Shown here one piece after another: positions 1,419 to 45,154 of a stretch of DNA of 64,000 nucleotides (its first letter is position 1; every line of letters begins with the position of its first letter). The DNA is taken from positions 67,480,676-67,544,675 of the forward strand of contig CM049316.1 in assembly GCA_026874595.1 (NCBI GenBank), read 5' to 3'. A program made the position numbers and the translations under genes. The stretch is from Sipunculus nudus. Lineage: Eukaryota; Annelida; Sipuncula; Golfingiida; Sipunculidae. The notes under the pieces are model-generated. The model saw only the letters and a list, made by a program, of their open reading frames with translations. It was not told the DNA's origin and did no database searches.

Positions 1419-1547
1419 AACGTATTAACACTTGGGTGTTATGTGTAGGATGCATTGCAATCAGAACAGAGACTGGTCCTAATGTGATCGGCTGGTGCAC
1501 GCCACAAACACAATTTAGAAATAATACATATATATATATATATATCA

Positions 1548-2335
1548 TGTTACGGAACCTAATATAACCTAAGATCACGTATGCGTGATGAACATAAATT
1601 TTGTTAAGGAGATGAAAAAAACAGGTTTTGTAACACATGGCAGCGTGAAATGTCTAGGGGAATGAATGAAAAAGTTAGTGTTTTTTTTGTTAACAAATAA
1701 CTTTAATTTATTCTTAATACAAACTTAACATTACAATACATTGAATCAATACAATGACACAGTATTACAGCAGTATAACAACAAATCAATACAATCACAC
1801 AGAAAAAAAAACAACAAAGTGCACAGTACCTGGATACCACCACTGTCAGAGCGACCAGACCTTTAAAATGTCGGACGAATAGTTCACAAAAATTCTCTCG
1901 GAGAATAACAGTAAAATTTAAAGTAAAATGTAACCATCCCGAAAGTAAACTGAAGACCAAATAAGATTCGTCACGAATCCAGAAGAAAATCTGAAGAAAA
2001 ATCTATAATTGCCGCACTTATCGGAATAGGTCCCACAAACTGACATACACGCTTCTGTGTCCATTGGAATATTCTCTCACCTCTCTCTCGGCTCTAAAAC
2101 GCGGCCTCTATTTATAAGCTTTCCTCCGAAAACTCTAAACATTCCCTTTCACGAACAATCCATAATACACAGTACACACGCTCAAAGAACATACTAGAAC
2201 GGGAACCTTGTCAGGGTTCACACGTTGGCCTGCCCGGCCCGGCCAGGTGATGCTACAATGGCAACGAGCTACGCGAACCAAATGTCAACAACACATGGAA
2301 CATCCGTGTGCCCAATAAAACAATCCTCTGTTATA
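1548..2335 (-). repeat. 3' LTR of the Gmr1-like element
   Basis: It begins 'tgttacgg' and ends 'ctctgttata', and matches 6,494-7,000 over most of that length. It carries about 230-280 bp (around 1,640-1,920) absent from the other LTR, so one copy has an indel. On the minus strand a TATA box (TATAAATAG) lies near 2,110-2,118 in a conserved block. 'atca' flanks the outer edge. The inner edge abuts a polypurine tract. Confidence 0.85.
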
Positions 2336-2349
2336 CTCCCCCCTACTGT
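2336..2349 (-). other. Polypurine tract of the Gmr1-like element
   Basis: On the minus strand this reads CAGTAGGGGGGAG directly against the 3' LTR. That is the expected position and composition of the plus-strand primer of an LTR retrotransposon. Just inside it (about 2,350-2,385) an inverted repeat with GAAAGTTTT / AAAACTTTC arms could form a hairpin. Confidence 0.75.
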
Positions 2350-2536
2350 AAGAAAAAAGAAAGTTTTCTCAAAAAAACTTTCTTTTTGCGATCACAATCA
2401 CTAAATTTTACAACATCTCAACAATCATCTTATTTACATCATTACATGTCAAGCAAACAAAGCTTTAATAACAATCAAACAATTTATCTCAAAATACCAG
2501 CAACTATCTATTTGTAAATCGTTCTTTCTTTTTGAT

Positions 2537-3760
2537 AGAATGGTCCTTCCAATTTTGTGCTATTGTAGTGAACTATGGGGTTTTGAAACATGTGACAATA
2601 TTGAAAGTGTACATACCAAGTTCTGTAAATATTTTCTCAAAGTTAATATGAATACACCAGTTGCTGCAGTACTAGGAGAATGTGGGCGGTTGCCCTTGAA
2701 GATTCATTATATAATAAAAGCTATAACTTATTGGACTAATTTGATAAATATGACAAATAATAGATTACCAAAGCAATTGTATAATAAATTATATCGCTTA
2801 GATGAAGCAGGAAAACAGAACTGGGTAACTAATATAAAGAAAATATTATTTTCGCAAGGATTTGGCTATGTTTGGATTGAACAAGATGTAGGGGATGTTA
2901 AATTATTTATCTCGGTATTGAAACAGAGATTAAATGATTCTTTATTGCAGGATTGGACGAGTAGTATATCTAAAAATCGTCGATTAAACACATACTCAAC
3001 TTTTAAATTAACTTTAAGCACTGAAAAATATTTAACAGTTCTACAGAATGTTAACTTTAGGAAAAGTCTTTCAAGAATAAGATGTTCATCACATAATTTA
3101 GAAGTAGAAAAAGGAAGGCATAGTAATACTCCATGGGATGAAAGGTTTTGTAAATATTGTCTAAGATATGGGGAAGCTGTTGTGGAAGATGAGCATCATT
3201 TTATCATGAAATGTCCATTGTATACAGACTTGAGAATCAAGTATATTGATGATTTAAGTACATTTACATCTCTGATGGCAGATAATAATGCCCATACAAT
3301 AAAATAATTAGCAACCTATGTACACTATGCCTTTATTAGGAGAGATGATGAATTGAAAGCTATCATCTAAGTAATCTATTTGTTTCACTTACTTATTAAT
3401 CTACCAATTAATAAATAGATAAACTGTTTTCTATATATGCATTGTACTACTGTTTGTTTTATATGTTTACTTATTATTATTATTATTATAATTGGTATTA
3501 TTATTGTTATTATTTATGACCTCTAAATGAAATGAAACATGTGATTACAAAATTTTTGCTTGTGTTTAGATATTGCAAACATGGGTTTTTCATACAACTT
3601 TTTCAAACAAGATTGTGTTTTAATGCGTGTTTTGTTAGGTCATGTTATGCAGTTACATTTTGTTATTGTTGAATTTTTGTGATTCTTAACACATGCTCTT
3701 TGTGGAACCATGGGCCTGAGGCCTTTTATTTCAGAATAAATTTCTATTCATTCATTCATT
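2537..3760 (+). mobile_element. 5'-truncated LINE inserted in the Gmr1-like element
   Basis: This is a plus-strand fragment of a non-LTR retrotransposon: the C-terminal part of an RT-encoding ORF, about 450 bp of AT-rich 3' UTR, and an (ATTC)n tail ending near 3,760. It sits between the RNase H end of the host LTR element and its polypurine tract, in opposite orientation, so it is a nested later insertion. Truncation at the 5' end is typical of LINE retrotransposition. I cannot assign the clade firmly. Confidence 0.8.
2540..3307 (+). pseudogene. C-terminal part of a LINE reverse transcriptase
   Basis: This is an open frame of 255 codons with no internal stop. It starts inside the RT C-terminal ('thumb'/connector) region, with a 'LCYCSELWGF' block followed by a conserved 'HTKFCKYFL' segment, both characteristic of the end of LINE ORF2. 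Near the C-terminus (about residues 207-232) is a zinc-finger-like motif, C-x2-C with 'EHHFIMKC' downstream, of the kind found at the end of many LINE proteins. The endonuclease and catalytic RT motifs are absent, so this is a 5'-truncated copy. The apparent start methionine is just the first ATG after the truncation. Confidence 0.8.
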
Positions 3761-3773
3761 ACATTAACATTGT

Positions 3774-6469
3774 TTACAACATTTCATAACCATTTCGATA
3801 AGCAATCACAAGTACATTGTCTTTACCTTTAATGTGTATGATTTCAAGATTTTCATCCTGTAAGAACAAACTCCATCTCAACAATCTTTGATTTTCACCC
3901 TTCAACTTGTCCATGAATGTGAGGGGATTGTGATCACTGAAGACAATGTTAGGCTTGACTGATGAAGTAACATAAACCTCAAAATGTTGCAATGCCAAAT
4001 TCAAAGCCAAACATTCTTTTTCAATAGTGGAGTAGTTTTTTTTCTGGTTTGCATTAAACTTTCTTGAGAAATAACAAATTGGATGATCTATGCCATCATT
4101 GCCTTCCTGTAACAACACGGCACCAGCATCAGTATCACTAGCATCTACAGCTAACTTAAAAGGTACAGAAAAGTCTGGAACTGCTCAAACTTGTGAACTT
4201 TGCAGAATTGCTTCCAAATTCCGAAATTCATTTTCGCACTGAAGATTCCATACAAGCTTTTGTTTCTCCTTTAACAAATTAGTCAAAGGTTCAGCTAAAG
4301 CTGAAAAAATTGGACAGAATTTCATGTTGTATTCAACCATACAAAGAAAACGCATTATTTGTGTTTTTGTTCTCTGGTCTAGGAAATGCAGATATAGCAC
4401 TTATCTTAGCATCAATAGGTTTTACTTGACCCTGCCCTACAATATGACCCAAAAATATTACTTGTGAATGACAAAACTCAGATTTAACTAAGTTGACGGT
4501 CAGACGTGCTTAACTGAGTCTCTCGAAGAGGTCGCAAAGAATTTGCAGATGTTTCTCCCATGTGCCGCTGTACATGACGAGGTCATCAAAATATGCGTCG
4601 CAGCTCTGAATGTCCTTGACAGCCATATGGATGAGGCGCTGGAACGTGGCTGGCGAGTTCTTCATGCCAAACGGCATAACTTTATACTGGTACAGTCCTT
4701 GCAGCGTCACAAATGCGGGCACTTCTTTCGCTCGTTCTGTCAGCGGAACTTGCCAGAATCATTTTAGCAAGTCAAACATGGACACATATCTGGAGCTATC
4801 GAATCTATCAATACAATCATCGATCCTCGGAATCAGGAACATGTCAGTCTTGGTGACAGAGTTCAGTTTTCGATAATCTGTTCACATACGGTAATTTCCA
4901 TCAGGTTTTGGCGAACTCCAGTTACTGCTTCTAGGTTCAATAAAATCATTGTCCAGCAAATATTGAATCTCATTCTGTAGATACTTTTGCTTTTCTTGAT
5001 TCAGTCTATATGGATGCTGTTTGACTGCGCTTGCCTCGCGCACATCGACGTCGTGGCACAATATGTTAGTTCGCGTTTGAATGTCATTAAATATACGCTC
5101 ATAATTCCGAAGCAGGTTCTTGAGGTCTTGTTGTTGTTGTGCGGTAAGGTGTGACAGTTTGGCATCCAGGTTTTTAAGCACGTCTGATTTCTTTAGTGGT
5201 ACTGTTCCACACTGCATGTCTACATCAAAATTAGAATCAGTATCTACTTCAACTGAGTCAGGGTAAGTTTTTACACAATTAACAGCAGTAACATTGTGTA
5301 CAGCATCTGAATTGTTATTTCTGTCATGATATGGTTTCAACATTTTAACATGGCACAGTTGTTTTTTCTTACGCCTATCTGGTGCCAACAGTATGTATTT
5401 TAAATTACTGACTTTCTTGTCAACAATGTTAGGACCAAAAGGTTGCAGACGGCTGCCAGGCAAGGACCTTTTCACCAGGCTCAAACGTCCTGCTTACATA
5501 CTTGTCATACTTTATTTTCATTTTACTTTGTGCAGATTAAGATTTGACTTTGCAATCTCACAAGCACTGTGTAGTTTAGTGCGAAAGTCTGAGACATACT
5601 GCAGTAAACTAAGAGAATCAGGATTTTCACACAAGAGTTTTTCTTTAAGCAGTTTCAATGGAGGTTCAGTTCGCGGTCCATGTCCGAAAACTAGTTCAAA
5701 GGGACTGAAACACAAGGACTCTTGAAAAGATTCTCCGACAGCAAACAGCAATAGGTGGATTCCTTCATCCCAGTCTTTCTGTGTGTCATAGCAATAGGTC
5801 CTGATCATGTTTTTTAATGTCTGGTGAAAACGCTCGAGGGCTCCCTGTCTTTCAGGATGGTATGGCTAAGAACTGTACTGTTTTATACCCAGCGGAAGTA
5901 TAACTTATTGGAATAAGCCAGACATAAAATTAGACCCTTGGTCAGGCTGGACGGAATTTGGTAATCCAAAAGTTGTAGAAAACATGGTCAGAGCTTTGAC
6001 AACACTTTTGGCATTAATTTTGCGCAATGGTATTGCCTCAGGGAACCTGGTAGATGCGCACATAATTGTCAGCAAGTATTCATGTCCAGATTTTGTTTTG
6101 GGCAGTGGTCCAACACAATCAACAATAATCCTACCAAAAGGATCCTCGGAAGCAGGAAGGGGCCTAAGTGGGGCCTTAGGAGGATTCTAATTGGGCTTGC
6201 CTACCATCTGGCATATATTGCATGATTTACAACATTGTACAGCATCTTTACTGAGGTTAGGCCAATAGAAGTGTTTACTAACTTTCGGATAAGTTTTATT
6301 TATACCTAAATGGCCAGACAAAGGAGCCTCATGTGCCATGCTTAGAATTCTATTGCGAAAGTTTTTGGGCATTACCATTTTGATGTTTGATGGCCCACTC
6401 ATCATCGGCGCATACATCATAAAACAATGTGTCAGGGTCAAGGCCTAATAAATTTTCAAAACTATTAAG
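3774..6469 (-). pseudogene. Pol pseudogene: integrase - reverse transcriptase - RNase H
   Basis: Reading leftward, the integrase zinc-binding domain lies at 6,441-6,187 (H..H and the C-x2-C in 'CKSCNIC'). The DDE core is at about 6,180-5,820, with D in 'IIVDCVGPLP', D in 'QPDQGSNF' and E in 'GALERFHQ' all present. The integrase C-terminus is at 5,808-5,350 ('CHVKMLKPYH'). The RT follows, with FIEPRSSNWSSP near 4,910, VMPFGMKNSPATFQ near 4,660 and the catalytic box YFDD near 4,590. RNase H lies at 4,400-3,774. One uninterrupted frame (5,484-4,882) carries both the integrase C-terminus and the RT N-terminus, which proves the order. Lesions include stops after GKPN, two in the DDE core, a TGA in the RT YRM..TDYRK motif, another stop near 4,762, and frameshifts. 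Confidence 0.85.
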
Positions 6470-6487
6470 CGTCCAGACGAGCCCTAA
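6470..6487 (-). other. Primer-binding site, tRNA-Pro-like
   Basis: Reading the minus strand a few nt inside the 5' LTR, the sequence is TTAGGGCTCGTCTGG. It shares the contiguous core GGGCTCGTC with the tRNA-Pro primer site used by many retroelements, and about 12 of 18 positions match overall. Position and core match support the call; the mismatches fit the element's decay. Confidence 0.6.
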
Positions 6488-6493
6488 ATTTTA

Positions 6494-7000
6494 TATAACG
6501 GATCCTAATATCAACAGATCACGTATGCGTGATGAACATAAATTTTGTCAAGGAGATAAAAAAATCAAATTCTGTAACACTTGGAGAATAACAGTCCAAT
6601 GTAAAGCTCTTGTAACAAACCGAAAGTAAAATGAAGACCAAATAAGATTCGTCACAAATCCAGAAGAAAATCTATAATTGCCGCACTTATCGGAATAGGC
6701 CCCACAATCGGACATACACGCTTCTGTGTCCGCTTCTCTCACCTCTCTCTCGGCTCTAAAACACTGCCTTTATTTATAACCTTTCCTCCGAAAACTCTAG
6801 AAAATTCCCTTTCACGAACAATCCATAATACACAGTACACACGCTAAAAGAACATACTAGAACGGGAACGCCGTGTCAGGGTTCAAACGTTGGCAAGCCC
6901 GGCCCGGTCAGGCGATGCTGCCATGGCAACGAGCTCCGCGAACCAAATGTCAACAACACATGGAATATCCGTGTGCACAATAAAACAATCATTTGTTACA
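6494..7000 (-). repeat. 5' LTR of the Gmr1-like element
   Basis: This LTR is homologous to 1,548-2,335 but shorter (507 bp) through loss of an internal block. It ends 'atttgttaca' followed by the target duplication 'atca'. The minus-strand TATA box near 6,771 is conserved. It ends close to the primer-binding site, which identifies it as the 5' LTR. Confidence 0.85.
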
Positions 7001-7512
7001 ATCAATACAAATTGTTTTTATGTTTCCCTGAAAGTGTTGGGCTTATAGTGCCAGATATTCTCAGCTTTTGATCAGATCTGATCTTTTAAGTCTTGGTTTT
7101 CCTTGTGGATGACGTCATTGCGCATAACATATCTATGAATTAAGTCAAGAAGTATATAAGAACTATTAGTTCTGCGCTTTTGTTCCATATGTATCATTCT
7201 CTTATATCAAATAAAATTTAGAAAAGAATTTTACAGTTTACAGTGCGTGTTAATAATAAATTTGCCAATAACTTTTTAACTAATCAAACATCCTTTCGTT
7301 TTTTTTTTCAAGGAAAAGATCAATTTCTTCCAGAAATTGGAATTAAAGTCTATATTTATATTTTTATAAGCAAGTGTATTATATGATAATATAATTAGAT
7401 TAGGAATACGGCTGCTTGACCAGGAAGCCTCGGTCAGGGAATAATGCCTACTGCTGAAACCAAGGGTAAATTTTCAGAACTACTCACAAAAACATTTGCT
7501 TACCGAGAGACG

Positions 7513-7710
7513 ACCCATAATGTAATAACCGGCCCATATTGTAATAACGGCCCATAATGTAATAAAAACGACCCATAATGTAATAATGGCCCATAATGTA
7601 ATAAAAACGGCCCATATTGTAATAACCATACCCTGCCCATATTGTAATAAAATCGCAAGTGGGTAAAACGGCCCATATTGTAATAAAATCGCAGGTGGGT
7701 AAAACGGCCA
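7513..7710 (+). repeat. Left inverted-repeat array of the foldback-like element
   Basis: About eight copies of CCCATA(A/T)TGTAATAA are separated by 3-20 bp spacers. The pattern pairs with the inverted array at 10,490-10,737. The open frames here are artefacts of the repeat. Confidence 0.8.
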
Positions 7711-9165: not shown

Positions 9166-10489
9166 TCCTTGTCCCCCAACTAATGAATTTGTAAGTAATA
9201 AACTGCAGTTAGAAATTAAAATCTCATTGCTAATTAATAAAAAAAATATGAAAAATGAAAATAAATCACGAAAATTGGGAAATTACACACACACACAAAT
9301 ATATATATATAAACTTGGTATTAGATTAAGTGAAATTCCGAAGGGACGGCGAGTACTGGATGCGACCGGGGCCATGCCGAGGAGCGATGAGATTTTTCAT
9401 GGTAGGTCCCCATCCAGGGTGATCGCTCTGCATAATGCGAAGGCTGTGCCCAACAGCCGTGTATCACATTTATATCACAAACGAATGCAAAATTTGGCGA
9501 GATCCTCCATGTTATGACTCAGTAATGGGGATGATTACACACCCCGGACCTGCAGGTGAGGTAGTTACCTGACACCAGGATAATATATAAATGATACTAA
9601 GCGAGATAGATTTATACAGATGTACAAACAGGTTAAGATTAGTTAAAAAAGCGATTAATTCTACAAACATATATATATATATACTTTATTCCTTCAAACT
9701 TTGAACCATCCTACAGGGAAAGTTTCACTCAGTAGTATAAAAAAAAAAACATTTTTTAATGGAACAGGGTGACAGTATTTTGTCTACCTAAAGGATCGAC
9801 GAACAACTATGAAGACCTATAAAGACTACCGAACGCCACCATCTGAGCCATGGGGGGTGCCTCCAAGTAATTATTACAACTGTTTGTACAATCCATGAAA
9901 AACCAGATGTTTGCAATCGCCCAGCGATCGCAAGGGAAGTCTCCTTCAGCCTTCTGCACCCTACCAAACATACGAGCCCCACCCCCACCCCCACCCTAAC
10001 GGTCTATATATACATATATATATTGCCGTTTTTACAATAATTGACAGTTAATAGATTATGGGTCGTTATTACGACTCATATTGTTATAACGTCCTATATT
10101 GTAACAATGGTCAATATTGCAGAAGAAATTGCCTATTTTGTTGTAAAAACGGCCAATATTATAATAATTGCCAATACCGTAATAATCAATGAGTAACATA
10201 GTAATAACTTATCCTCACCTTTACTGTTAGGAGCATGGTCGGGGCTTAAATGGGCAAAAAGGCCAATATTGTGAAAAAAAATGCAGTTTAGAAGATAATG
10301 ATTAAATTCATGTCAAATTTACGTAGACAGCATAAATGTTAACTGTTTCACTGGATTTCAATTATGACTGCATCTCTTATACAAAATGAGGAACTAAAAT
10401 GGCTGTAATTTTAGAAGGTGTTCTCAAACGACATATCGCCTGTTAGATTTCGGATTCATTCTTGAGTTTAAACATATGTTATTACAATA

Positions 10490-10737
10490 TGGGCCGTTTT
10501 TCCCACTTCCCGTTTTATTACAATATGGGCAGGGTATCATTATTACAATATAGGTTGTTTTTATTACAATATTGGCCGTTATTACAATAAGGGCCGTTTT
10601 TATTACATTATGGGCCGTTATTACAGTATGGGCCAGTTTTATTACAATATTGGCAGTGTATGATTATTACATTATGGGTCGTTTTTATTACAATATGGGC
10701 CGTTATTACATTATGGGCCGGTTATTACATTATTGGT
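10490..10737 (-). repeat. Right inverted-repeat array of the foldback-like element
   Basis: Repeats of TTATTACA(A/T)TATGGGC in inverted orientation relative to 7,513-7,710. The reverse complement begins 'accaataatgtaataacc', close to the left terminus 'acccataatgtaataacc'. Confidence 0.8.
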
Positions 10738-11281
10738 TGTAACATCCACTCGACAAATAGATTTGTTAATTAATATTGTATTTTACCATCACGTTTGGCT
10801 TACTAATAAATATCACAATTACAAGGGCCTGCTAAGATCTGTTGATCACGATATTATCAATATGTTCTTTTTCTGTATATAGAAATGAAGCATATAGAAT
10901 ACAAAGCCGTGGTGTGACTGGATTTCGCATGTTTGTCTAATCGTCCGTCAAATCTCTTCGTTTAGATACGTATGGAGTCACCTACTGCAGATGCCACAGA
11001 TTATATAAACTAGATGTAATCAATAACGCGCAACTGAGCGATAATGGGGATTTGGTTAAGCTGTATACGACCTTCGGAATACGTTCAAGGTCAGGTGTAG
11101 ACCTGTACAAGAAATTAAACATTAAAACAAAGCAGATGAGATGATTCTTTTTGAGAAATACAGAAGATAAAAAATAAAAATAGCTTTTTTCAATAATAAA
11201 CATATAACAACAGTCATACTTATCTAGTATCAAGACCTTGCACCTATAGATAAGTGGAATGAGAAAATGGGTTTCATGTAA

Positions 11282-11282
<1 letters not shown>

Positions 11283-11370
<88 letters not shown>
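11283..11370. repeat. (CT)n(TA)n compound microsatellite
   Basis: A CT run of about 35 bp passes directly into a TA run, 3' of the unit 1 transporter gene. Unit 2 keeps only a CT run at about 34,267-34,295. Confidence 0.9.
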
Positions 11371-11372
<2 letters not shown>

Positions 11373-11644
11373 CTAAAGTGAACTGTAAAAGAATGAATAA
11401 GAAAACATGAATAACGGTCTTATTTAATGTTAAACATGTAAACATTTCCATTTAATGTTATATTTAATGTTATATAAATATATAAAGCTTATGTATATAT
11501 ACACATACACCTGCTGCTGAATACTGTAGCCTCAACAATCAAATTTGCAAAAAATGCCTGGTAGATGTCTTACAAAAATTGTAGCGGTATATACAGTGCT
11601 CCCTGTCTTCATCCGATGACATAAATGGCTGAGGGTTGAAGGCG

Positions 11645-11808
11645 TTATGTTGGCGTGTCGACGTTATCATCCATGTTTTGTTGAGTTTTTCTGACGTTGA
11701 TTTTTATAAATATGTACGTCAATGTGCTCAACACGCCACCAGCGACTTCTACAAGGCCAAAGATCAAGAACGGATCGGCGAAATTTTTGGTGACGTCAAC
11801 GATAGCGC
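11645..11808 (-). CDS. SLC16-like gene 1, coding exon 6 and stop
   Basis: The acceptor is 'atttcttcag'. The exon encodes TM12 and a short charged tail ending in TAA at 11,645-11,647. It pairs with 34,651-34,739 in unit 2, where one base is missing. Confidence 0.82.
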
Positions 11809-14271
11809 CTGAAGAAATATATCACACAGTAAGTTTATGTATAACAGAATTCTATCATAAAAAATACATGCAACGTCATAAACACACAGTTTTTAAGGGT
11901 TTCAGAGTAGAGCACAGGACTCAAAGCCGGAAGATCATGAGTTTGAAACTTAGTCGAGGAGCTGTGAGGTGGCCCCAGCCCAAGGAGACCGCTCTGCATG
12001 CTAAATTGGAAGACTGTATCCCCCGAAAATGTGATTCGCTTAGGAGAGTGCGCCTTTCGGGGGCTAAATTGCGTTACACACGCGGGACCCGCATGTGCGG
12101 TACACATGAACCTGGTTGACGCCAGAATAATCATGTGTTTCCACCCCGTCACATATTCGAAAACTGGAATGGTATTCTTTAGATGTAAATAGATCTATAG
12201 CATTAAATATACGAGGGATGAACACCTTTGCTTTTTATTTGTTTAAACTTGTGTTAACAGTTTCTAATTGTAACTGTCATTGGCTCATGCACATGATTTA
12301 ATTATGAAAATTATATAAATAATTCTAGTTCGATTACACAGTCTCCTATATTTGGTTTCCGAACCAGAAGATATTGAATCATTTAGAACATATCTGGTTG
12401 GATTTTACAGCAATACAGAGGGCAGCGGATATATTTAGACATCCGACCCTTTTGTAAGGAAGAGAATAACATATAAAACGTTAACTGAAGGTATCCCTTA
12501 TAAATATTGATATAAAAAATTAAAAGAGCTATGAGATCACAGAATATTTCTAAGGGGTGTTTATGTATGTTGAGACGTCCCCTTCCTTTAACTATTTTTA
12601 ACTATTTTACCTGTGCAAGAAATAATTTTTTTATCAGCGTTTATCTTGTTTTTCTTTCAGCGACAAATAATTTTCTTCCTTTCTCCCTGTGTTATTATAT
12701 AAAAAGAATTTTTATGTAAGCATAATATCGGTAAGTTATATCAAAAGCATCTTTCGCATCTGTGTAAGTCTGTGTAAACCATTATTTGAGTTTTTCAAGA
12801 GTCTTTGTTACCTGCGATAGGGGGCGAGATCACTGTTGATGTACCAAACGAGAAGCAGAACAATCCAGTCACGTGCTCATATTTATCTCGCGTGACGAGA
12901 TCTCCAAGAACTGCCGTCTGTAGGCTCATATAACCAGCTGAATAAGTGAAAGTATTTTGAGAGGTTATTAATAAATCAAAGTTATGGTGAGATATGTCAC
13001 AATTTGTTAAATTTACAAATCTTTAAAACGTCTTGTTTTGTCTCATTTTTTCACGTGTAATAGACCAATTTCCACGAGCATGCGCACTAAATCACGTCAG
13101 TTGTGTTCTGTTTCTGTGACAAGTTACAACTGACATAGGCAAACAGTAAATTTCATTAGTCCACCTATAGTGTTGAATTAGTGTTGAAGTGTACAATAGG
13201 CATCTGTATTTTATAATTATGACGTGTGTGTATGTGTGGTGTATGTGTGTGTACAAACAAAACAGTTACCTGTCATTCCCCCGGTGAAACCCGCATATAT
13301 ACCAAAGGCCAAATAGCCTTCCAGGACATACGAAACTGTGACTAATATTCCGACGACTAATCCACTCAATCCAAGAACGACAACGCGCCAATATCCAACA
13401 TGATCTCCAATGAAACCGAATATAGGTCGTAAGACAGCACTGGTTATCCCCATTATAGTCACGGCAAACGCCGCCTTTTTCTTTTCTACTCCGACTGACT
13501 CAAGTCTTGCTGGTAAAAACAAATAGGCTATCACGTGACCTGCCAGTATCATAGAGGAGCTGATTAAGAACAGGGGTACCCGGATGTTGTAACAAACTGA
13601 AAAATCGAAAATGCTTCGTATGAAAGACTTGAAAGTGAATTTCATTTTGCTTTGCGAAGCTCCTCCTGTTCCTGGTGTGTAGAATGGTCGCAAGAGGGCA
13701 CCACATACTGCAGCTTGAAGTTGAATGGCGCCGAGAACAAGGACTGCGCCTCTCCACCCGTACTCGTCTATAAATGAAAAATACAGACAGAGAAGCAATA
13801 TATCTCTTCATTTATCTCTACGCACGTACAACAATACCCTCCTAGCCTACCATACACACAGGTCGCACTTTTGTCAGAGACGTAGGAGTGGCACCACATA
13901 CCATGTCAAAAATTATTCTTTAAGCATCACCTGTGCGGTCCGGTGGAAATAAAAATGGTTAAGCGAAAAATAATCTAACAAACCCTGGTGAAAACATTGC
14001 CTCCTTGGCAACCTTACCTATGAGTACGCGGGTGATGAGTGGAAGACCGATAGTACCCAGCCCTATTCCGAACGCTAACAGCCCCATCGCCAGAGAACGA
14101 TGTTTGTTGAAGTACTGGAGAATAACAAGAATCGAGCACATCCCATAACAGCCGATACCAAGACCTGGAAAAGCAAGAAACAGACGGGAAAAGTCTACAG
14201 CTAACCGGAAAGGGGACAATTGAACCCTGATAATTGCATGTTTGTATGTGTGTGTTTGTATGTGTGTTTGT

Positions 14272-14306
<35 letters not shown>

Positions 14307-15108: not shown

Positions 15109-15174
<66 letters not shown>

Positions 15175-17026: not shown

Positions 17027-17028
17027 CG
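16825..17028 (-). CDS. SLC16-like gene 1, coding exon 1
   Basis: The acceptor 'ttctattacag' is followed by 2 nt and then the ATG (17,026-17,024). The exon encodes the short N-terminus and TM1-TM2, including 'DKGYAW'. The donor is GTAACT at 16,824. It ends in phase 1. Confidence 0.88.
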
Positions 17029-17886: not shown

Positions 17887-17946
<60 letters not shown>

Positions 17947-18662: not shown

Positions 18663-18666
<4 letters not shown>

Positions 18667-18735: not shown

Positions 18736-18742
<7 letters not shown>

Positions 18743-35809: not shown

Positions 35810-38038
35810 TGTGGTCGCGTAGACCGAGAATATCACTCGCACAGTCACCCAAATCACGAGACAATGTGAATGTATACGGTTTATTCCTTCCGTCCAGAAG
35901 GTAGAAACTTCCTGGAATATATAAATGTAACAAAGTATATTAATATACTGTTGAATATCGTATCACATAGTATATTCAACATATCATATATATAGTATTC
36001 AACGTATCCTATATAGTATTAAAGTAACAACAAAATATGTTTGGTTCACGCTGTCAACAAAGTACGTTTGTGACCATCAGTTAAAGTTCACGAAATTTAA
36101 TGTTAAAGGTCACAAGGTTTGTTTGACAATAATAGATCAGTGAGTTTAATTCATCAATTTCCTTTATGGCATGTGTGCATCACATTTGCCATTCAAAATT
36201 AATATGTTATAAGAGACCACCAAATAATTAGATACCATCTGATATGGGTATTCACTATTACATAATATGCAGGCTATTATGAGTATAAGAGTATACATAT
36301 ACTCAAGAGCAAGTATCATTAGTGTGCCATTATTTACAAAGTGTTTACGAGCACAGTATCATTGGTGTTCACTTACCAAAGTGTGTTTACACATAAGTAA
36401 TTCTGACACAAACTGAGTCATTATTAAAGGTGTGATTCTAGAGGGGGGTCAACTACAGAATTCTGACGATATCATTGTAACGTGTGTTCTACTATTACAA
36501 AAGATAATCTGCAAGTTATTAAAAGAAAAGATTTCCATTGAAGCTCCTGTTGTTAATCACAGCGTGTAATATTAACAATGTTTACTATCTCTATATGACT
36601 TACTTGTAAACACATTTTTATGTACCTGTTTCATGTATCATTTTTATGTATCTATCATCACAGAAACCAATCATAACTGATACAATGTTCAGTCAACCCA
36701 CTTTATGCTCTATACCCAAAGAAATGCTATTTTTACTTTTTTATAATAAACAATCATACACCAATGTTTTCTTGTGTGTTTTCACCAATCAGGGAGTAAT
36801 TATTTCATTCTCCTCCCTAACATAACATTTGAGAAATTAAACATAACACTCACATCCCAAAAGAGGATGGCATCCAGCCTGGGTGGCTGAGTAGAGATGA
36901 CAGGGTACAGACAAGGGGTCAGGCACATGTAGGTTTTCCTGTGGAATAGCAGTTGTCATGATATATTATGTGAAGACACCAATAATAACTTTATACAGGC
37001 ATTACACACTAGCGCCATCTGTCTTCCAGAAACATAACTAATACTACAAGTATTCAGAAATTACACTAGCGCCATCTGTCTTGTACAGACAAAACAAGTG
37101 ATTCTACATACTTTTCAAGTAGATTCATGGCATAGTGTTTCATAATAATACAATAGTAGTCCAGTCATAAATACAAATGTGACTAATAACATATTTAGCT
37201 GATTTACATGTATATGTTACTATAAAACCTGTATTCAGACATAACATCTCTGATATAACCATCAATGTGAAAACTCCAATTATTTACTTCCTGACAATAT
37301 GTTGGGATTTCCAATACACACAGACATGTAGGAGAATAACACACTAATATATAATGGTATATTCAGGAAAACAATATAATTGAACGTGGTATAATAAAGA
37401 AGTCGTGCGACAATCCTTTCACTATGGTCATCCTGTATACACGTGCCATGGTGCTTTCACTGAAATCATGTCATTATGAGCAATAACACATGAAACTATA
37501 TTTATAGTCTACGGTGGCATCGAGCATCAGGGAAAACAATATTATTCTCACGTACAATTACATATCTTTACACAGTTACAATAAAAAGTATTCTGACTCG
37601 AGAGAAACAACATGTCCGCTCCTTTTTCCAATCACATGGTTTAATGGACTATCAGTTATCGGTAAATAATATAAAATGTAACCAGGTAATCTGCCTGATT
37701 TTAGGGTAAGAAGGGACAATATGAATGATTAATAATGTTTAATCATCCTCCCTGAGTGTCTTGGAACATGAGACAGAAAGATGCTTCTTGATCTGATTCC
37801 TGACGAAATACTGGACTGTCTTTCACATACAGTTGGGCGGAAAAGGAAGTTGATCTTTTACCGTAATGAACCCTTACAGATAAACCATAATTGTTTAAAA
37901 AAAATAACTTTAAATTCACCACCAGGTGGCAGCACATCACCTTTCTTGACATGATCATTATAGATACTATAAAGGCTACCAGATGTCAGCACAGTACAGT
38001 TTATGCTATATGTACACGACCTAATAAACACTATCACA
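35810..38038 (-). repeat. 3' LTR of the Gypsy element (2,229 bp)
   Basis: It runs from 'tgtggtcgcg' to 'ctatcaca'. Positions 36,365-38,038 match 43,484-45,154 at about 98 percent; the outer 555 bp have no match there. Minus-strand signals: a TATA box (TATAAATA) near 37,505 and an AATAAA near 35,880, the latter in the part missing from the 5' LTR. Confidence 0.88.
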
Positions 38039-38040
38039 TT

Positions 38041-38056
38041 CACCCCCCTTTATCAT
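38041..38056 (-). other. Polypurine tract of the Gypsy element
   Basis: On the minus strand it reads AAAGGGGGGTGAATG directly before the 3' LTR start TGTGATAG. This marks the LTR edge and the element's orientation. Confidence 0.8.
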
Positions 38057-38345
38057 TACTCGTCCCTGAGTAATAAAATGAATATCATTGTGTACTCAAC
38101 TACATAAGTGACTACATAAGGAACTGACAATGAAACCTCTCAGTTACATACATTAACATGCATTGGCACAAGTGTATGTAATACAAAAACATCGATCCAT
38201 GATGGTCATGTGTGCAGTGTCATGTGTACAGTGTTCTTAATAAAGGTTTATGCAGTTATGTCAATACAGAACGTGGCAATCTAAATGGGTTAGAGTGTTT
38301 CCCTGCTGTAGACCTTGTGCTCTTTCTTACTGTGTGCACTAGAGA

Positions 38346-41300
38346 TTATGTATCGGAAGTATCTCTGTTGGAGTCACTAGAATCACTAGAGAGAGAACTC
38401 TCAGGCTCGGTGCTAATCTGATTTTCATCTTCCTGGTGAACAATGGCAATAAAGTTTTCCTCACTAGTTTCACTAGAGTTTGTCGAGCTAGTCGAACGAG
38501 ATTTACGATTTCTAAGCTTCATTCGGAATCCTGTTTTGGTTGTTTTTGGACGTTGTACAGGTTTGTTTGAGTATAGAATGGGACATACTTTCAGTTCACA
38601 TCTGTTGACCCATTTATATTTTCCAAATCCATCAGCGGGTTGTATTTGATAAACATTCCTCTCATTCACAACATCCACCACTTTATAGACTTCACTGTGA
38701 TAGGCATTTTGAATTTTGTGGCGTCCTTTGAAACCTCTTTTCCTGTAATACACTCTCTGTCCAATATCAAGTGAGAATTCCTAAGCTCGTTTGTCTGTGT
38801 ACTGTTTTCTCTTTTCTAACGCTTGTGCTAGACGTCTCCTTACTATCTTGTAAGCGTTTTGTAACCTGCTCTGGTGAAAAGCTATCCACTGATTTACACT
38901 GGTGGATGGAGATTCTTGTACTAGGCCCAGAAGGTTATCTATCGGTAGTTTTGGATCTCTCCCATACAAGAGGTAGAAAGGTGAAAAACCTGTGCTTGTG
39001 TGAGGAGTAGTATTGTAAGCATACACAATTTCTGTGAGGTGTTCAGGCCATTTGCGTTTTGCTTGTGCAGGCAAAGTTCTCAAAAGATCATGCATAGTAG
39101 CATTAAATCGTTCACATTGTCCGTTTGATTGCGGATGGTATGCTGTTGTTCTGGTTTTCTTAGTACCATAAAGACGACAAAGTTGTTTTATGACCTGACT
39201 TTCAAAGTCTCTGCCTTGATCAGAGTGTAATCTGGTTGGTGCACCAAAACGAAAGAACCATTCCTGTACTAAGATTCTCGCGACTGTATTAGCGGTTTGA
39301 TCTCTTGTAGGTACAGCAACTGTCCATTTTGTGAATGTGTCAGTCATGACGAGTATATTTTCCATACCATTCGTAGCTTTCTCTAGTACCGTAAAGTCTA
39401 TGGCAAGTACCTCCAGTGGGTGTGTTGCCTCAATAGTACCTAATGGAGTCTTTACTTTGACCTCTTTACCGATTAAACATGGTTCACAATGAGCAATATA
39501 TTCTCTAGTTTCCTTGTCCATACGTGGCCAGTAACAACGTGCCCTGATCAAAGCTAGTGTTCTATCTATGCCTTGATGTCCTTGTTTGTCATGTAATGAC
39601 TGAAGTACCTCTGATTTGAGCTGGCTTGGAAGCAGTACCTGTCTACAAATACCTACATCAGGATTTTGTACAACTCTATAGTATACGTCATCTTGTTCCT
39701 CAATTCGCTCCAACTGTCTAATCAATAATTGGACCTCAGCAGACTCTTTCTGTCTGTCTGCCCTACCTGGCTTTTCTTTATTGTGCAGTTTAAGCTCTAT
39801 GAATCTCCCTATAACCGGATCCTGTCTCTGAAGATCAGAAAGTCCGCCAGGTGTCACTGTTGCTAGGGTTGTAGCAAACATCTGATTGGTTTGTCCTTGT
39901 ACAGGCTTACTGCTGTTTGAGATAGTTACATCCTCCCAAATGCTGTTTTGTAGTGATAGGGATAATGATGTACCTGTTAAGTACTGACTGCAGACATCAG
40001 ATCCACTTACTGTGTTCGGAGTAGAACGTATCTTTCTCGACAATGCGTCAGCGTTCTGGTTATTTTTGCCGGGTTTATATTCCATAGTAAAATCAAATCC
40101 AGCTAATGCGGATGCCCACTGCTGTTCGATGGCCTGAAGTTTTGATTTCTTCATGAGATAAGTCAAGGGGTTGTTATCTGTTTTGACGACAAATCTGGAA
40201 GCCATCAGATAATCTCGCCATTTATCAACAACTGCCCACTTTAAAGCTAGTGTCTCTAACTTCATTGAACTGAAATCACTCATCTTTTTCTCAGAAGGCC
40301 TTAGAGCACGGCTTGCATAGGCAATGACTCTCACTTTGTTTCCTTGGTTCTGACTCAATATGGCCCCTAAACCATCTTTAGATGCATCAATTTCGAGAAT
40401 GAACGGAATAGTGAAGTCTGGGTACCCTAAAACTGGTGTGGTTGTGAGACACTCCTTCAATTGACAAAAAGCTTCTTCATGACAAGTCCTCCATCTGTTT
40501 CCTATTTTAGCTGTTCTCTTCTCTTTTTTCATATCTCCTATTAGTGCATAGAGAGGTTTGGCTACTGTGGCAAATTTGTTAACGAACCGTCTATAATAGG
40601 CTGCCAATCCCATGAATTGTCTGAGAGTTTTTAGAGTTTGTGGTCTTTCCCATTCCCGGACAGCTGCAAATTTATCAGGGTCCGTCTTGACGCCCTCGGG
40701 GGTCACGATGTGTCCTAAAAACTTTACCTCAGACACAAAAAATGTACACTTCTTTGGTTCAAGTTTTAGATTGTGCTGACGCAACCTAGCGAAAGTGGTT
40801 TCTAGTCTTTGCAAGTGTTCATCTATGGTTCGGCTAAACACTAACACATCATCTAAATATACCAACAAAATGCGTAGGATTTCCTCTCGAAATACTCTTC
40901 CCATCAGGCGTTGGAATGTCGCGGGGCTGTTCGATAATCCGAATGGCATCCTTAAATATTCAAATAAACCCATTGGTGTGGTAAACGCAGTACGATAACG
41001 ATGTTCTGGAGTTAACTCAACTTGGTTGTATGCTGCGGTTAGATCAAGACTGGAGAAATACTTAGCTCCACTCATGGATTCTAGCGATTCCTCGATTCTG
41101 GGTAGAGGATAGACATCTCGGCGCACTTTCTGATTAACCTTTCGAAAATCTACACACAGTCTGATCCCGCCTGTCTTTTTGTGTACTATGACAATCGGTG
41201 ACGCGAAATCTGAGCTACTCTCAGTAATGATGCCTTTTCGAAGAAGTTCCTCTAAGTGTGCCTTAAATTCATTCCACAAGTGTGGAGGTACTCTCCTATA

Positions 41301-41462
41301 AGGTTGACATATAGGTGTAGAATCTTCCATGTTGATTTTGTGTTGAATTGTTGGTATAACACCAAGTGGCTCCCTCTCCTGATAAAAGATATCAGCATAC
41401 TGCTGTAAGAGATGTTCCATCTGTTTTTTTCTGTCTGGGATTACCTTGAAAATTGGTAACAT
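38346..41462 (-). pseudogene. Gypsy Pol: RT, RNase H, integrase (one in-frame stop)
   Basis: The main frame (41,462-38,781) gives 893 residues. RT: 'FSSLDL' with the first catalytic Asp near residue 140, 'MPFGLSNSPATFQ' at 172-183, and the catalytic box YLDD at 202-205. RNase H: Asp in 'LEIDAS' (359), Glu in 'LETL' (403), Asp in 'KTDNN' (429) and the end motif 'ADALSR'. Integrase: zinc finger H624, H629, C659, C662 and DDE residues D689 ('AIDF'), D748 ('HSDQG') and E784 ('QCERF'). A TAG at 38,783-38,781 interrupts the frame, which continues to 38,346 with the integrase C-terminal domain ('GFKGRHKIQNAY') and an acidic Ser-rich tail. All catalytic residues are present. Upstream, the frame differs by one base from the protease frame. 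Confidence 0.9.
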
Positions 41463-41556
41463 CTGGAAGGTGTACAGTAGTCTTTGGAATCTCTGTTGAT
41501 GAACGTGCTATCTTGAGTCGTTCTGCATCCTCGAATATCTCAAGATTATGCTTGAC

Positions 41557-42291
41557 CTATTGGATAGCTGAAACAGTTGCTATTCGCGTTCTGGGCTTAA
41601 GAGTGACTTCCCTGTCTAAAAAGTTAGCAACTCTTAGGATAGTATTACCCTTATCTGTTATAAGATATGGTGTAACAGCAACCCCTGGAATACCACAATT
41701 AATTCCTTCTATCAGTCCAACACCTGTGTCTAGCTTTTTGAATGTTGTTCTTATGTGAGATATACTCCCTTGAGGAAGATTCGCTCCATCAGTAGATACT
41801 CTGACAAAACCAGTTTGGCTGTTGTTATTCTGTGCCTGTGTATCACTTAGGATAGCTTGAAATGATGGCATAAACTTCAGTATGTTAGTACCTATAATTC
41901 CTCGGAATTGAGACTGTCCTGTTGGTTTAGTGATAATGATGCCTCTCTCTGGTATTTTTATTCCTTCAATTTCTATGTCCATCACAGCTATTCCTTCATA
42001 TGGGATTTCCAGACCGTTTGAAGCCGTTAAGTCTAGCCAATCAGTTGTAGGGAGAAATGTTACTTGATCTCTGAGCTTTTCTTTGAACAAATCCATAGGC
42101 AAAGTGGAAACATCAGATCCAGTATCTACCAAGCATTCGATTACTGTTCCTGCAAAGGAGACTGAAATGGTAGGTCTTGATCCAACAGTTTTATTAAGTA
42201 ACTGAGCTAGTTGACTGCTATCTGGTTTTGAAGTATCTGTTGTCGATCTGGCGGCCTGTGTTACCTTGGCTGCCTCTTCCAAGTCTTTTTT
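41557..42291 (-). CDS. Gypsy retropepsin-like protease
   Basis: This frame overlaps the end of gag and would be entered by -1 ribosomal slippage at 42,285-42,291. The active site 'CLVDTGSDVSTLP' lies about 55 residues in, and the flap and 'GIIGTNIL' motif are as in aspartyl proteases of Gypsy elements. It ends at a TAG (41,559-41,557). Homologous sequence continues past this stop toward RT but then needs a frame change, so this copy would not make a joined protease-RT product without recoding. Confidence 0.85.
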   Translation of the reverse strand, partial: KKDLEEAAKVTQAARSTTDTSKPDSSQLAQLLNKTVGSRPTISVSFAGTVIECLVDTGSDVSTLPMDLFKEKLRDQVTFLPTTDWLDLTASNGLEIPYEGIAVMDIEIEGIKIPERGIIITKPTGQSQFRGIIGTNILKFMPSFQAILSDTQAQNNNSQTGFVRVSTDGANLPQGSISHIRTTFKKLDTGVGLIEGINCGIPGVAVTPYLITDKGNTILRVANFLDREVTLKPRTRIATVSAIQ

Positions 42292-43169
42292 TTCTTCTTA
42301 CGGCAATTCACTTCCTTATGATAAGGTTTATGACAATAATTACATATGAATTTTGGTCTTGCTCCTATGAATCTGTCACTAGGTGGGGCTGCAGCAGCGC
42401 TAGCTAGAGACGCAAAACCCTGAGTCATAACCTTCATAAGTTCTTCCTGCTGTTTGGCTAGTAGCTGTTGTTGTTCCTGTTGTTGCTCTAAAACTTTGGT
42501 CAAAGTGACTTGAGCCTGGACCAATTCTGACAAACCAGCTGGGACTTGTTGTGCATGAGATTTACCACCGGGTGTGTTTTTGTAGATCTTTATCGCATAA
42601 TCACGGAGATCTTTGAAAGTAATATCAGGTTGAGTCTCAATCTTGTTGCACATATCCGTATACAAACGATGATCTTCTATCCCATCCACGAATCGGCTCC
42701 TGAGCGTTTTATCTTTGTTCGTAATGCAGGTATGATCCACCTTAATCGCACGATCTGCCAATTCCAATAACGCATGCGAAAATTCTCTGAGCGTTTCTCC
42801 TTTCCGTCTCTTCCTGCCATGGAATTCACTGACTAGTTGTGAAGACGATAGCCTTTCTCCAAATTCACATTCCAGTAGCTTGAAAATCTCCTCTGGATTT
42901 GCTCGTTCAGAATCGGTTAGGAGTCTGATCTCTTTCTTGGCATCACCTTCAAGATGTGTAATTATAAATTCACTAGCAACTTCTCCTGTCAAGTCCATAT
43001 TGGTGATCCAGCTGCTAGCTTCTTGTAACCAGTCCTCGAGCTTATCCGGGTCCCCATCATATTTGGCAAGTTTTTTTGCAGAGTACAACAGTTTGGATGG
43101 TTGTGACTTACCAGCCATTAATTTCTGGAGAGACTCGATCTGACTCTTGAGCTCCTCTACTTCCCCCAT
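42261..43169 (-). CDS. Gypsy Gag
   Basis: From the ATG at 43,169 this gives 302 residues: a short N-terminal coiled-coil-like segment, a capsid-like region with the retrotransposon gag pattern ('LEDWLQEASSWI', 'FHGRKRRKGETLREF'), a Gln-rich stretch, and a C-terminal CCHC zinc knuckle ('CNYCHKPYHKEVNC', C-x2-C-x4-H-x4-C) followed by a Lys run. The frame stays open 53 codons further upstream to 43,328. That extension starts with a hydrophobic, signal-like segment, but the internal start gives the usual gag layout. The stop overlaps the protease frame. Confidence 0.85.
   Translation of the reverse strand: MGEVEELKSQIESLQKLMAGKSQPSKLLYSAKKLAKYDGDPDKLEDWLQEASSWITNMDLTGEVASEFIITHLEGDAKKEIRLLTDSERANPEEIFKLLECEFGERLSSSQLVSEFHGRKRRKGETLREFSHALLELADRAIKVDHTCITNKDKTLRSRFVDGIEDHRLYTDMCNKIETQPDITFKDLRDYAIKIYKNTPGGKSHAQQVPAGLSELVQAQVTLTKVLEQQQEQQQLLAKQQEELMKVMTQGFASLASAAAAPPSDRFIGARPKFICNYCHKPYHKEVNCRKKKKKTWKRQPR
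42285..42291 (-). promoter_or_regulatory. -1 ribosomal frameshift slippery site (A AAA AAG)
   Basis: In the gag frame the minus strand reads ...AAA AAA AAG ACT. The heptamer A AAA AAG is a canonical -1 slippery sequence, and shifting back one base enters the protease frame directly. It lies 22 nt before the gag stop. Confidence 0.75.
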
Positions 43170-43483
43170 GATGTAACGGGTTCTCAGGTCACAAGTATTG
43201 ATAACAACTGGTGAAAGTTTAAAGACGCCCTGACTGTTATGGAGTACAATTACATCACTCAGTATTGTACATGTCCCACAATGTACAGTGGGAAAACATA
43301 ATATAACATATAGGACTATGGGTATCATATCAGTGTGTGTGGTGTGAGGAGTACAGTATCTGAAAAATCTGTTTTCACACCGTGATGTGTATACTAACCA
43401 GTATAGTCATCAAGTATCAACGTACATGTGAACATCAAAAGTATATGAAATATTCTCAAAGTGTCACTCTGATGCATATACAT

Positions 43484-45154
43484 GTGTTCACTTACCAAAG
43501 TGTGTTTACCCATAAGTAATTCTGACACAAACTGAGTCATTATTAAAGGTGTGATTCTAAAGGTGGTCAACTACAGAATTCTGAGGATTTCATTGTAACG
43601 TGTGTTCTACTATTACAAAAGATAATCTGCAAGTTATTAAAAGAAAAGAATTCAATTGAAGCTCCTGTTGTTAATCACAGCGTGTAATATTAACAATGTT
43701 TACTATCTCTATATGACTTACTTGTAAACACATTTTTATGTACCTGTTTCATGTATCATTTTTATGTATCTGTCATCACAGAAACAAATCATAACTGATA
43801 CAATGTTCAGTCAACCCACTTTATGCTCTATACCCAAAGAAATGCTATTTTTTCTTGTTATAATAAACAATCATACACCGATGTTTTCTTGTGTGTTTTC
43901 ACCAATCAGGGAGTAATTATTTCATTCTCCTCCCTAACATAACATTTGAGAAATTAAACATAACACTCACATCCCAAAAGAGGATGGCATCCAGCCTGGG
44001 TGGCTGGGTAGAGATGACAGGGTACAGACAAGGGGTCTGGCACATGTAGGTTTTCCTGTGGAATAGCAGTTGTCATGATATATTATGTGAAGACACCAAT
44101 AATAACTTTATACAGGCATTACACACTAGCGCCATATGTCTTCCAGAGACATAACTAATACTACAAGTATTCAGAAATTACACTAGCGCCATCTGTCTTG
44201 TACAGACAAAACAAGTGATTCTACATACTTTTCAAGTAGATTCATGGCATAGTGTTTCATAATAATACAATAGTAGTCTAGTCATAAATACAAATGTGAC
44301 TAATAACATATTTAGCTGATTTACATGTATATGTTACTATAAAACCTGTATTCAGACATAACATCTCTGATATAACCATCAATGTGAAAACTCCAATTAT
44401 TTACTTCCTGACAATATGTTGGGATTTCCAATACATACAGACATGTAGGAGAATAACACACTAATATATAATGGTGTATTCAGGAAAACAATATAATTGA
44501 ACGTGGTATAATAAACAAGTCGTGCGACAATCCTTTCACTATGGTCATCCTGTATACACGTGCCATGGTGCTTTCACCGAAATCATGTCATTATGAGCAA
44601 TAACACATGAAACTATATTTATAGTCTACGGTGGCATCGAGCATCAGGGAAAACAATATTATTCTCACGTACAATTACATATCTTTACACAGTTACAATA
44701 AAAAGTATTCTGACTCGAGAGAAACAACATGTCCGCTCCTTTTTCCAATCACATGGTTTAATGGACTATCAGTTATCGGTAAATAATATAAAATGTAACC
44801 AAGTAATCTGCCTGATTAAGGGTAAGAAGGGACAATATGAATGATTAATAATGTTTAATCATCCTCCCTGAGTGTCTTGGAACATGAGACAGAAAGATGC
44901 TTCTTGATCTGATTCCTGACGAAATACTGGACTGTCTTTCACATACAGTTGGGCGGAAAAGGAAGTTAAACTTTTACCGTAATGAACCCTTACAGATAAA
45001 CCATAATTGTTTTAAAAAAATAACTTTAAATTCACCACCAGGTGGCAGCACATCACCTTTCTTGACATGATCATTATAGATACTATAAAGGCTACCAGAT
45101 GTCAGCACAGTACAGTTTATGCTATATGTACACGACCTAATAAACACTATCACA
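43484..45154 (-). repeat. 5' LTR of the Gypsy element (matching part)
   Basis: This matches 36,365-38,038. The outer end 'ctatcaca' abuts the target duplication 'agta'. The inner 555 bp of the other LTR is not present; between 43,339 ('tgtggtgtgagg') and 43,483 the sequence is unrelated or strongly diverged. I could not find a clear tRNA primer site. Confidence 0.85.

What the first reader, a model, noticed from the sequence alone, without database searches (positions are those of the whole stretch)
1548..7000. Gypsy-type element with integrase encoded before reverse transcriptase
The uninterrupted frame at 5,484-4,882 contains the integrase C-terminus followed by the RT N-terminus, so the inverted domain order is read directly from sequence rather than inferred from fragments. 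Ty3/Gypsy elements normally have RT-RNase H-integrase. The copia-like order in a Gypsy lineage is known as Gmr1-like. A copy with tRNA-Pro-like priming and about 0.5-0.8 kb LTRs here would extend the known diversity.
Basis: partly seen in the sequence, partly recalled or inferred. Interest (0 to 1): 0.75.

Follow-up and report, generated by a model that had tools for sequence, protein, structure and literature searches.

The report
Broken Gmr1-type Gypsy retrotransposon copy
This is a decayed copy of an LTR retrotransposon whose integrase is encoded before its reverse transcriptase, the unusual order already known as the Gmr1 clade, and it belongs to a large family in the same genome.

Summary
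A Ty3/Gypsy-type LTR element lies on the minus strand at exactly 1548-7000, bounded by a 4-bp target duplication (ATCA) and two LTRs (507 and 788 bp). It reads integrase zinc domain, core and C-terminus, then reverse transcriptase (RT), RNase H, 3' LTR. Integrase C-terminus and RT fingers share one open frame (5493-4885).

The order belongs to the family, not to a rearrangement of this copy. In the same 1.43-Gb genome, 29 of 29 fetched relatives have it. Of 20 loci found by their integrase zinc domain, 14 have RT or RNase H downstream, 4 show neither within the ~1.5 kb held, and 2 are ordinary Gypsy with RT upstream. A second Gypsy element in the window (36365-45154) has the ordinary order.

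Three longer relatives also carry Gag with a SCAN-type capsid domain, which the literature ties to Gmr1-like elements. The window copy lacks gag-protease, has stops and frame changes in pol, a shortened 5' LTR and a LINE-like insertion.

The Gmr1-like call is supported. Gmr1 elements are already reported from fish, tunicates, frogs, crustaceans and an annelid, so this is a new member of a known kind. A tree against Gmr1 references could not be built.

The parts
1548..7000 (-). LTR retrotransposon, Gmr1-like Ty3/Gypsy, defective copy
   Evidence: LTRs, TSD and domain order
1544..1547 (.). target-site duplication, left copy (ATCA)
   Evidence: read from sequence
7001..7004 (.). target-site duplication, right copy (ATCA)
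   Evidence: read from sequence
6494..7000 (-). 5' LTR, 507 bp, lacks about 256-281 bp present in the 3' LTR and in LTRs of relatives (785-818 bp where complete)
1548..2335 (-). 3' LTR, 788 bp
6472..6487 (-). probable primer binding site next to the 5' LTR (tRNA-Pro-like, tRNA identity not verified)
   Evidence: tRNA sequence recalled
2336..2347 (-). polypurine tract before the 3' LTR
   Evidence: same place in L031, L032, L034, L035, L036
6199..6369 (-). integrase H2C2 zinc-binding domain
   Evidence: Pfam PF17921 E 3.4e-21
5521..6186 (-). integrase catalytic core in two open pieces (5905-6186 and 5521-5865), broken by stops; D-35-E spacing
   Evidence: Pfam rve E 6e-7 for the first piece; solved integrase match E 4e-8; second piece matches the integrase of the window's other Gypsy, E 2e-14; spacing is my own count
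4885..5493 (-). single open frame: integrase C-terminus (about 5332-5424), linker, RT fingers (about 4888-5067)
4513..4878 (-). RT middle and palm (YFDD) in two open pieces
   Evidence: Pfam RVT_1 E 2.5e-15 for the palm piece; Ty3 RT best in PDB, E 2.7e-13; middle piece matches the RT of the window's other Gypsy, E 3e-8
3777..4184 (-). RNase H
   Evidence: Pfam RT_RNaseH E 1.5e-30
2417..3772 (+). LINE-like fragment inserted between RNase H and the 3' LTR, with (ATTC)n tail and 10-bp repeat TTTACAACAT at 2407-2416 and 3773-3782
   Evidence: ORF 2405-3307 has no Pfam match; LINE identity inferred from tail, TSD and recalled resemblance
36365..45154 (-). control, not part of the element: ordinary Gypsy element with RT-RNase H-integrase order, LTRs 36365-38038 and 43484-45154

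Best explanation
This is an old, inactivated copy of a high-copy Gmr1-like Ty3/Gypsy LTR retrotransposon family. Longer family members encode Gag (with a SCAN-type capsid domain), a protease region, integrase, RT and RNase H in that order, followed by polypurine tract and 3' LTR. Shown here: the order in this copy and in relatives, LTRs, TSD, and the SCAN-type Gag in relatives. Inferred from general knowledge of LTR elements: Gag packages the RNA; a polyprotein is cut by the protease; a tRNA primes minus-strand synthesis next to the 5' LTR; RT/RNase H make the double-stranded DNA; integrase inserts it with a 4-bp duplication. The pol domain order changes only where the proteins are cut out of the precursor, not the cycle. 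This copy lost gag-protease (about 2.3 kb) and about 256-281 bp of the 5' LTR, gained stops and frame changes in pol, and received a LINE-like insertion, so it cannot move by its own proteins.
For: Domain order and boundaries. Same-window control with ordinary order, onto which the pieces of this element map in permuted order. Relatives: 39 further copies scored at 85-87% identity out of 1592 first-look candidates. 29 of 29 fetched relatives have the integrase-RT-RNase H order among the pieces detected, 24 with all seven pieces; one alignment in a single frame spans the junction in 19 of 29, with no stop in 8 of those. Six 10-kb relatives have LTRs around IN-RT-RH; the RNase H frame or match ends about 125-141 bp before the 3' LTR in five of six. 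Gag SCAN domain: E 2.5e-12 (L033) and 5.5e-9 (L034) in two of three gag-region ORFs scanned, and a genome-scan hit inside L031. 8 of 39 relatives have one of the 150 scored SCAN hits within 7 kb upstream on the same strand, none downstream or opposite, 0.014 expected. Of 10 SCAN-seeded loci, 8 have this family's H2C2 within 1.5 kb downstream and none of the 10 has an RT match. Of 20 H2C2-seeded loci, 14 have RT/RH downstream, 2 upstream (ordinary Gypsy), 4 neither.
Against: No phylogeny with named Gmr1 references. No Pfam protease match at E 0.1 or better in the four protease-region ORFs scanned, of which only L034's was seen to begin before the DTG motif; DTG was read by eye in L034 and L035. 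31 of 39 relatives have no top-150 SCAN hit within 7 kb upstream (only 150 of 2198 candidates were scored). TSDs match in the window copy, L031, L035 and L036 but not in L032 and L034, and not determinable in L033. The primer tRNA is not identified. The Ty3 entry is not among the 8 solved matches of the integrase core piece. Scans of viral contigs and genome contigs found no relatives elsewhere.
Confidence: 0.95

Rival explanations
1. An ordinary Gypsy element (RT-RNase H-integrase) rearranged in this one copy, so that the integrase came to lie before RT.
For: The copy is degraded, with large deletions and a LINE-like insertion.
Against: 29 of 29 fetched relatives share the order; the junction is in one frame in 19 of 29; integrase-seeded and SCAN-seeded scans give the same order.
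Confidence: 0.01
2. A chimera made in an ancestor by template switching between two Gypsy families, one giving integrase and one giving RT, and then amplified as a new family unrelated to Gmr1.
For: Integrase and RT could not be placed on a tree with Gmr1 references. Pairwise identities to two ordinary families of the genome differ by domain (to the window's second Gypsy and to L047: RT 37 and 39%, RNase H 29 and 38%, integrase 29 and 38%).
Against: Neither domain is close to either ordinary family in hand; Gag carries the SCAN-type capsid that the literature ties to Gmr1-like elements.
Confidence: 0.04
3. A Ty1/Copia element, for which integrase before RT is normal.
For: Domain order only.
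Against: RT hits RVT_1, RNase H hits RT_RNaseH, integrase has the H2C2 zinc domain and an integrase p58-type C-terminus; the best solved relatives of the RT palm are Ty3 and then 8r0s, an 'Enzymatic polyprotein' of caulimovirus type (virus type recalled).
Confidence: 0.005

Closest known systems
Gmr1 clade of Ty3/Gypsy (Goodwin and Poulter 2002; not read, seen as cited and described in passages of PMC3587641, PMC6238403, PMC8220671)
   Same: Gypsy-type RT, RNase H and integrase with the integrase upstream of RT; SCAN-type Gag capsid.
   Different: Nothing categorical found. LTRs are longer (785-818 bp where complete) than the 337-518 bp tabled for four Gmr elements of Tetraodontiformes (passage of PMC11117352). 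This copy lacks gag-protease. Sequence distance to named Gmr1 elements not measured.
LGF3 family of the annelid Lamellibrachia luymesi and GyRex4-like elements of crustaceans (passages of PMC8220671 and PMC3587641)
   Same: Reported as Gmr1-clade members in protostomes, so the clade is not confined to deuterostomes.
   Different: A later annelid study notes the L. luymesi Gmr1 clade as not found in its own analysis (passage of PMC8556966).
SCAN domain of vertebrate zinc-finger proteins
   Same: The Gag of this family matches the Pfam SCAN model above its curated cut-off; SCAN is described as derived from the capsid C-terminus of Gmr1-like elements (passages of PMC4592553 and PMC3406341).
   Different: Here it is part of a retrotransposon Gag. 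Zinc-finger fusions were not searched for.
Ordinary Ty3/Gypsy element in the same window (36365-45154)
   Same: Homologous RT (42-43% in the palm), RNase H (31-32%) and integrase (26-31%).
   Different: RT-RNase H-integrase order; no SCAN match in its two Gag-protease-region ORFs.

Membership tests
Gmr1 clade of Ty3/Gypsy | integrase encoded upstream of RT-RNase H | tested here: met
   29 of 29 fetched relatives
Gmr1 clade of Ty3/Gypsy | Gypsy-type, not Copia-type, RT, RNase H and integrase | tested here: met
   RVT_1, RT_RNaseH, Integrase_H2C2; Ty3 RT best solved match of the RT palm
Gmr1 clade of Ty3/Gypsy | SCAN-related capsid in Gag | tested here: met
   in relatives only: PF02023 in 2 of 3 gag-region ORFs; 8 of 39 relatives have a top-150 SCAN hit within 7 kb upstream; the window copy has no gag left
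Gmr1 clade of Ty3/Gypsy | RT and integrase group with Gmr1 references in phylogeny | not testable with these tools
   no named Gmr1 sequences came to hand; scans found nothing
Gmr1 clade of Ty3/Gypsy | aspartic protease between Gag and integrase | tested here: inconclusive
   no Pfam match at E 0.1 or better in four ORFs; DTG motif read in ORFs of L034 and L035
LTR retrotransposon | paired LTRs, TSD, PBS and polypurine tract | tested here: met
   primer tRNA not identified
Ty1/Copia | Copia-type RT (RVT_2) and integrase | tested here: not met
   one search lists no such family for any of the six pol pieces scanned

The most novel reading that the evidence does not exclude
The genome carries a very large Gmr1-like family (1592 first-look candidates of the junction; 2198 of SCAN; these counts are not verified) whose Gag matches the SCAN model, best known from vertebrate zinc-finger proteins, above its curated cut-off. 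If the host is an invertebrate, the SCAN-type capsid would be an old feature of Gmr1 Gags outside vertebrates, and some of the long open SCAN frames could be host genes domesticated independently of those of vertebrates.
Probability: 0.15. Interest if true: 0.45.

Novelty: new member of a known kind. Interest (0 to 1): 0.2.

Why it matters
It settles that the odd domain order in this window is a family trait and not an artefact, with an ordinary Gypsy element about 29 kb away as internal control. It adds one more host genome, with many copies, to the Gmr1 clade, and shows that the SCAN-type Gag and the integrase-first order occur together in it. It opens no new mechanism.

Tried and rejected
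Relatives outside the host genome: viral contigs with three pieces and genome contigs with one gave no confirmed match.

tRNA-Pro as primer: the pattern search of the host genome was sent eleven times and never answered, so the primer tRNA is left open; relatives' primer sites fit the recalled tRNA-Pro end only in part.

A tree of RT and integrase against Gmr1, Gypsy and Copia references was not made, because no references came to hand; pairwise identities to two ordinary families only show that the family is far from both. An alignment of two RT palms was made for a wider scan that was not run.

Considered and rejected: rearranged copy, Copia element. A PDB search of the Gag ORF of L033 found nothing at E 0.01. 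The Emerson and Thomas paper itself is not held; its claim is taken from passages of two other papers.

Full report
What is there. On the minus strand, 1548-7000 is an LTR retrotransposon. The two ends carry the same 4 bases outside the element (ATCA at 1544-1547 and 7001-7004). The LTRs are 507 bp (6494-7000, 5') and 788 bp (1548-2335, 3'); they align in two pieces, 86% over 440 positions and 83% over 102, gaps counted. A primer-site-like stretch lies just inside the 5' LTR and a polypurine tract just before the 3' LTR.

Domains, each searched as its own open piece: integrase zinc domain H2C2 (6187-6444, E 3.4e-21), integrase core (5905-6186, rve E 6.2e-7, 30.1 bits against a cut-off of 32.6; 5518-5865, rve_3 only at E 0.019), integrase C-terminus plus RT fingers in one frame (4885-5493), RT palm (4510-4758, RVT_1 E 2.5e-15), RNase H (3774-4184, E 1.5e-30). 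In the junction frame, residues 24-54 match Integrase_p58_C weakly (E 6e-4, below its cut-off), and residues 143-202 match the fingers of Ty3 RT (E 0.0023). The catalytic D and E of the integrase are 35 residues apart, counted through two in-frame stops (my reading). Among solved structures the RT palm is nearest to Ty3 RT (E 2.7e-13), RNase H to 8r0s (an 'Enzymatic polyprotein', E 9.8e-6) and then Ty3 (4.7e-4). The integrase core is nearest to an entry named only 'Integrase' (3dlr, E 3.7e-8), with PFV integrase at 1.7e-7, and the Ty3 entry is not among the 8 matches. No Copia-type model was listed for any piece.

Internal control. The window holds a second Gypsy element, 36365-45154, with LTRs 98.3% identical. 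Its 908-aa frame reads RT 108-268, RNase H 364-471, H2C2 627-678, rve 695-792. The pieces of the first element map onto it at 623-681, 686-770, 790-893 (integrase) and 120-156, 162-242, 363-483 (RT, RNase H). The domains are homologous and their order is permuted.

No room for a second integrase behind RNase H. Between RNase H and the 3' LTR lies a LINE-like fragment (2417-3772, + strand) with an (ATTC)n tail, flanked by the 10-bp repeat TTTACAACAT (2407-2416, 3773-3782). In 5000 draws of two 50-base stretches of the window (near pairs skipped), 23 shared any 10-mer. The right copy of the repeat overlaps the end of the RNase H frame; between the left copy and the polypurine tract only 59 bp remain (2348-2406).

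Is it this copy or the family? The host genome is held (1.43 Gb, 153 contigs, unnamed). The junction piece finds 40 scored matches including itself, the others 85-87% identical, of 1592 first-look candidates. I examined the 29 other fetched copies (29 of 39 scored relatives). All 29 have the order integrase, RT, RNase H among the pieces detected; 24 have all seven pieces; L006 and L008 lack RNase H, L028 the zinc domain, L007 and L018 the zinc domain and the first core piece. One alignment in a single frame spans the junction in 19 of 29, with no stop in 8 of the 19.

Six relatives were fetched at 10 kb each. L031, L034 and L035 have complete paired LTRs of 785-818 bp; L032, L033 and L036 have paired LTRs that are shorter or align in part. 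About 2.4 kb of gag and protease region lie between 5' LTR and integrase in L031 and about 2.5 kb in L034; in L032 about 1.6 kb. In L036 only the second core piece of the integrase was detected before the junction. The RNase H frame or match ends about 125-141 bp before the 3' LTR in L031, L032, L034, L035 and L036; L033 is not delimited. Natural single ORFs of L031 (378 aa), L032 (465 aa) and L034 (565 aa) contain Integrase_p58_C followed by RVT_1, both above their cut-offs. TSDs of 4 bp match in L031, L035 and L036, not in L032 and L034, and L033 could not be judged.

Gag. Of three gag-region ORFs scanned, two match the Pfam SCAN domain (L033 E 2.5e-12, L034 E 5.5e-9); the third, from L032, has no match. 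A genome-scan SCAN hit (with one stop) lies inside L031. L035 and L036 were not scanned by Pfam. So the series LTR, SCAN Gag, integrase, RT, RNase H, LTR is seen in three of the six. The two Gag-protease-region ORFs of the ordinary Gypsy in the window have no SCAN match. Passages of PMC4592553 and PMC3406341 state that SCAN derives from the capsid of Gmr1-like elements (the original paper is not held). A scan of the host genome with the SCAN model scored 150 of 2198 candidates, the 150 rows all above the cut-off. 8 of the 39 relatives have one of these 150 within 7 kb upstream on the same strand, none on the other side or strand, against 0.014 expected; 31 of 39 have none. Of 10 SCAN-seeded loci, 8 show this family's H2C2 within 1.5 kb downstream, L037 and L044 do not, and none of the 10 shows an RT match; one of them, L040, belongs to a copy already among the 39.

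A scan seeded only by the integrase zinc domain scored 150 of 6033 candidates. Of the 20 loci fetched, 14 have RT or RNase H downstream (L054 and L056 RNase H only), 2 (L047, L048) have RT and RNase H upstream as in ordinary Gypsy, and 4 (L052, L053, L057, L060) show neither within the stretch held. The 18 loci other than L047 and L048 are 75-92% identical to the window's first integrase core piece, those two 35%. In these 20, order and integrase type go together.

State of this copy. Compared with relatives it lacks about 2.3 kb of gag-protease and about 256-281 bp of the 5' LTR; pol has in-frame stops and frame changes. Its LTRs differ by K2P 0.092 over the 416 sites of the longer aligned piece, against 0.034-0.077 in the six relatives (506-814 sites), so it is probably an older insertion than those six. 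No substitution rate is known for the host, so no date is given.

How it works. Standard LTR retrotransposition (established knowledge, not tested): tRNA-primed reverse transcription in Gag particles, then integrase-made insertion. The order affects where the protease must cut, not the steps. The window copy could move only if proteins of other copies acted on it; I think it is dead.

What is known. Gmr1 elements are defined by integrase upstream of RT (passages of PMC3587641, PMC8220671, PMC6238403; also PMC2774666). They are reported from fish and a tunicate (PMC8220671), frogs with about 200 copies (PMC4131045), crustaceans as the first in protostomes (PMC3587641) and an annelid (PMC8220671), though a later annelid study did not find that clade in its own analysis (PMC8556966). 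Of these papers I saw passages only. Paper searches. In these searches I saw no report of Gmr1 elements in molluscs beyond a background mention in PMC6238403; the host here is not identified, so nothing is claimed from that.

Verdict. Observation confirmed; Gmr1-like reading supported on order, domain types and SCAN-type Gag; tree not done. New member of a known kind, low interest.

Noticed in passing
window 36365-45154: Young ordinary Gypsy element (minus strand) with 1.67-kb LTRs 98.3% identical and a 908-aa RT-RNase H-integrase frame; its Gag-region ORF has a weak PNMA-like match (E 0.055).
   Followed up: partly
window about 10745-29467 and 33722-57261: Diverged tandem duplication (about 70-89% identical in blocks) that carries an MFS-type transporter gene twice (13220-13807 and 45385-46113, minus strand); the young Gypsy element lies within the second copy.
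   Followed up: no
G000, genome-wide: 150 scored stretches above the SCAN cut-off in the host genome, some in open frames of 445-728 aa; whether any is a host gene and not Gag was not tested.
   Followed up: partly
window 2354-2387: Short inverted repeat (34 bp, 88%) just before the polypurine tract; its CTTTCTTTTTTCTTACAG part is kept before the 3' LTR in several relatives.
   Followed up: no
window 7510-7689 and 10476-10740: Arrays of a short TTATTACAATATGGGCC-like repeat in opposite orientations about 2.8 kb apart.
   Followed up: no
window 1641-1896: Stretch of the 3' LTR missing from the 5' LTR; LTRs of relatives such as L031 align through it and are 785-818 bp where complete, so it is a deletion in the 5' LTR and not an insertion in the 3' LTR.
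   Followed up: yes
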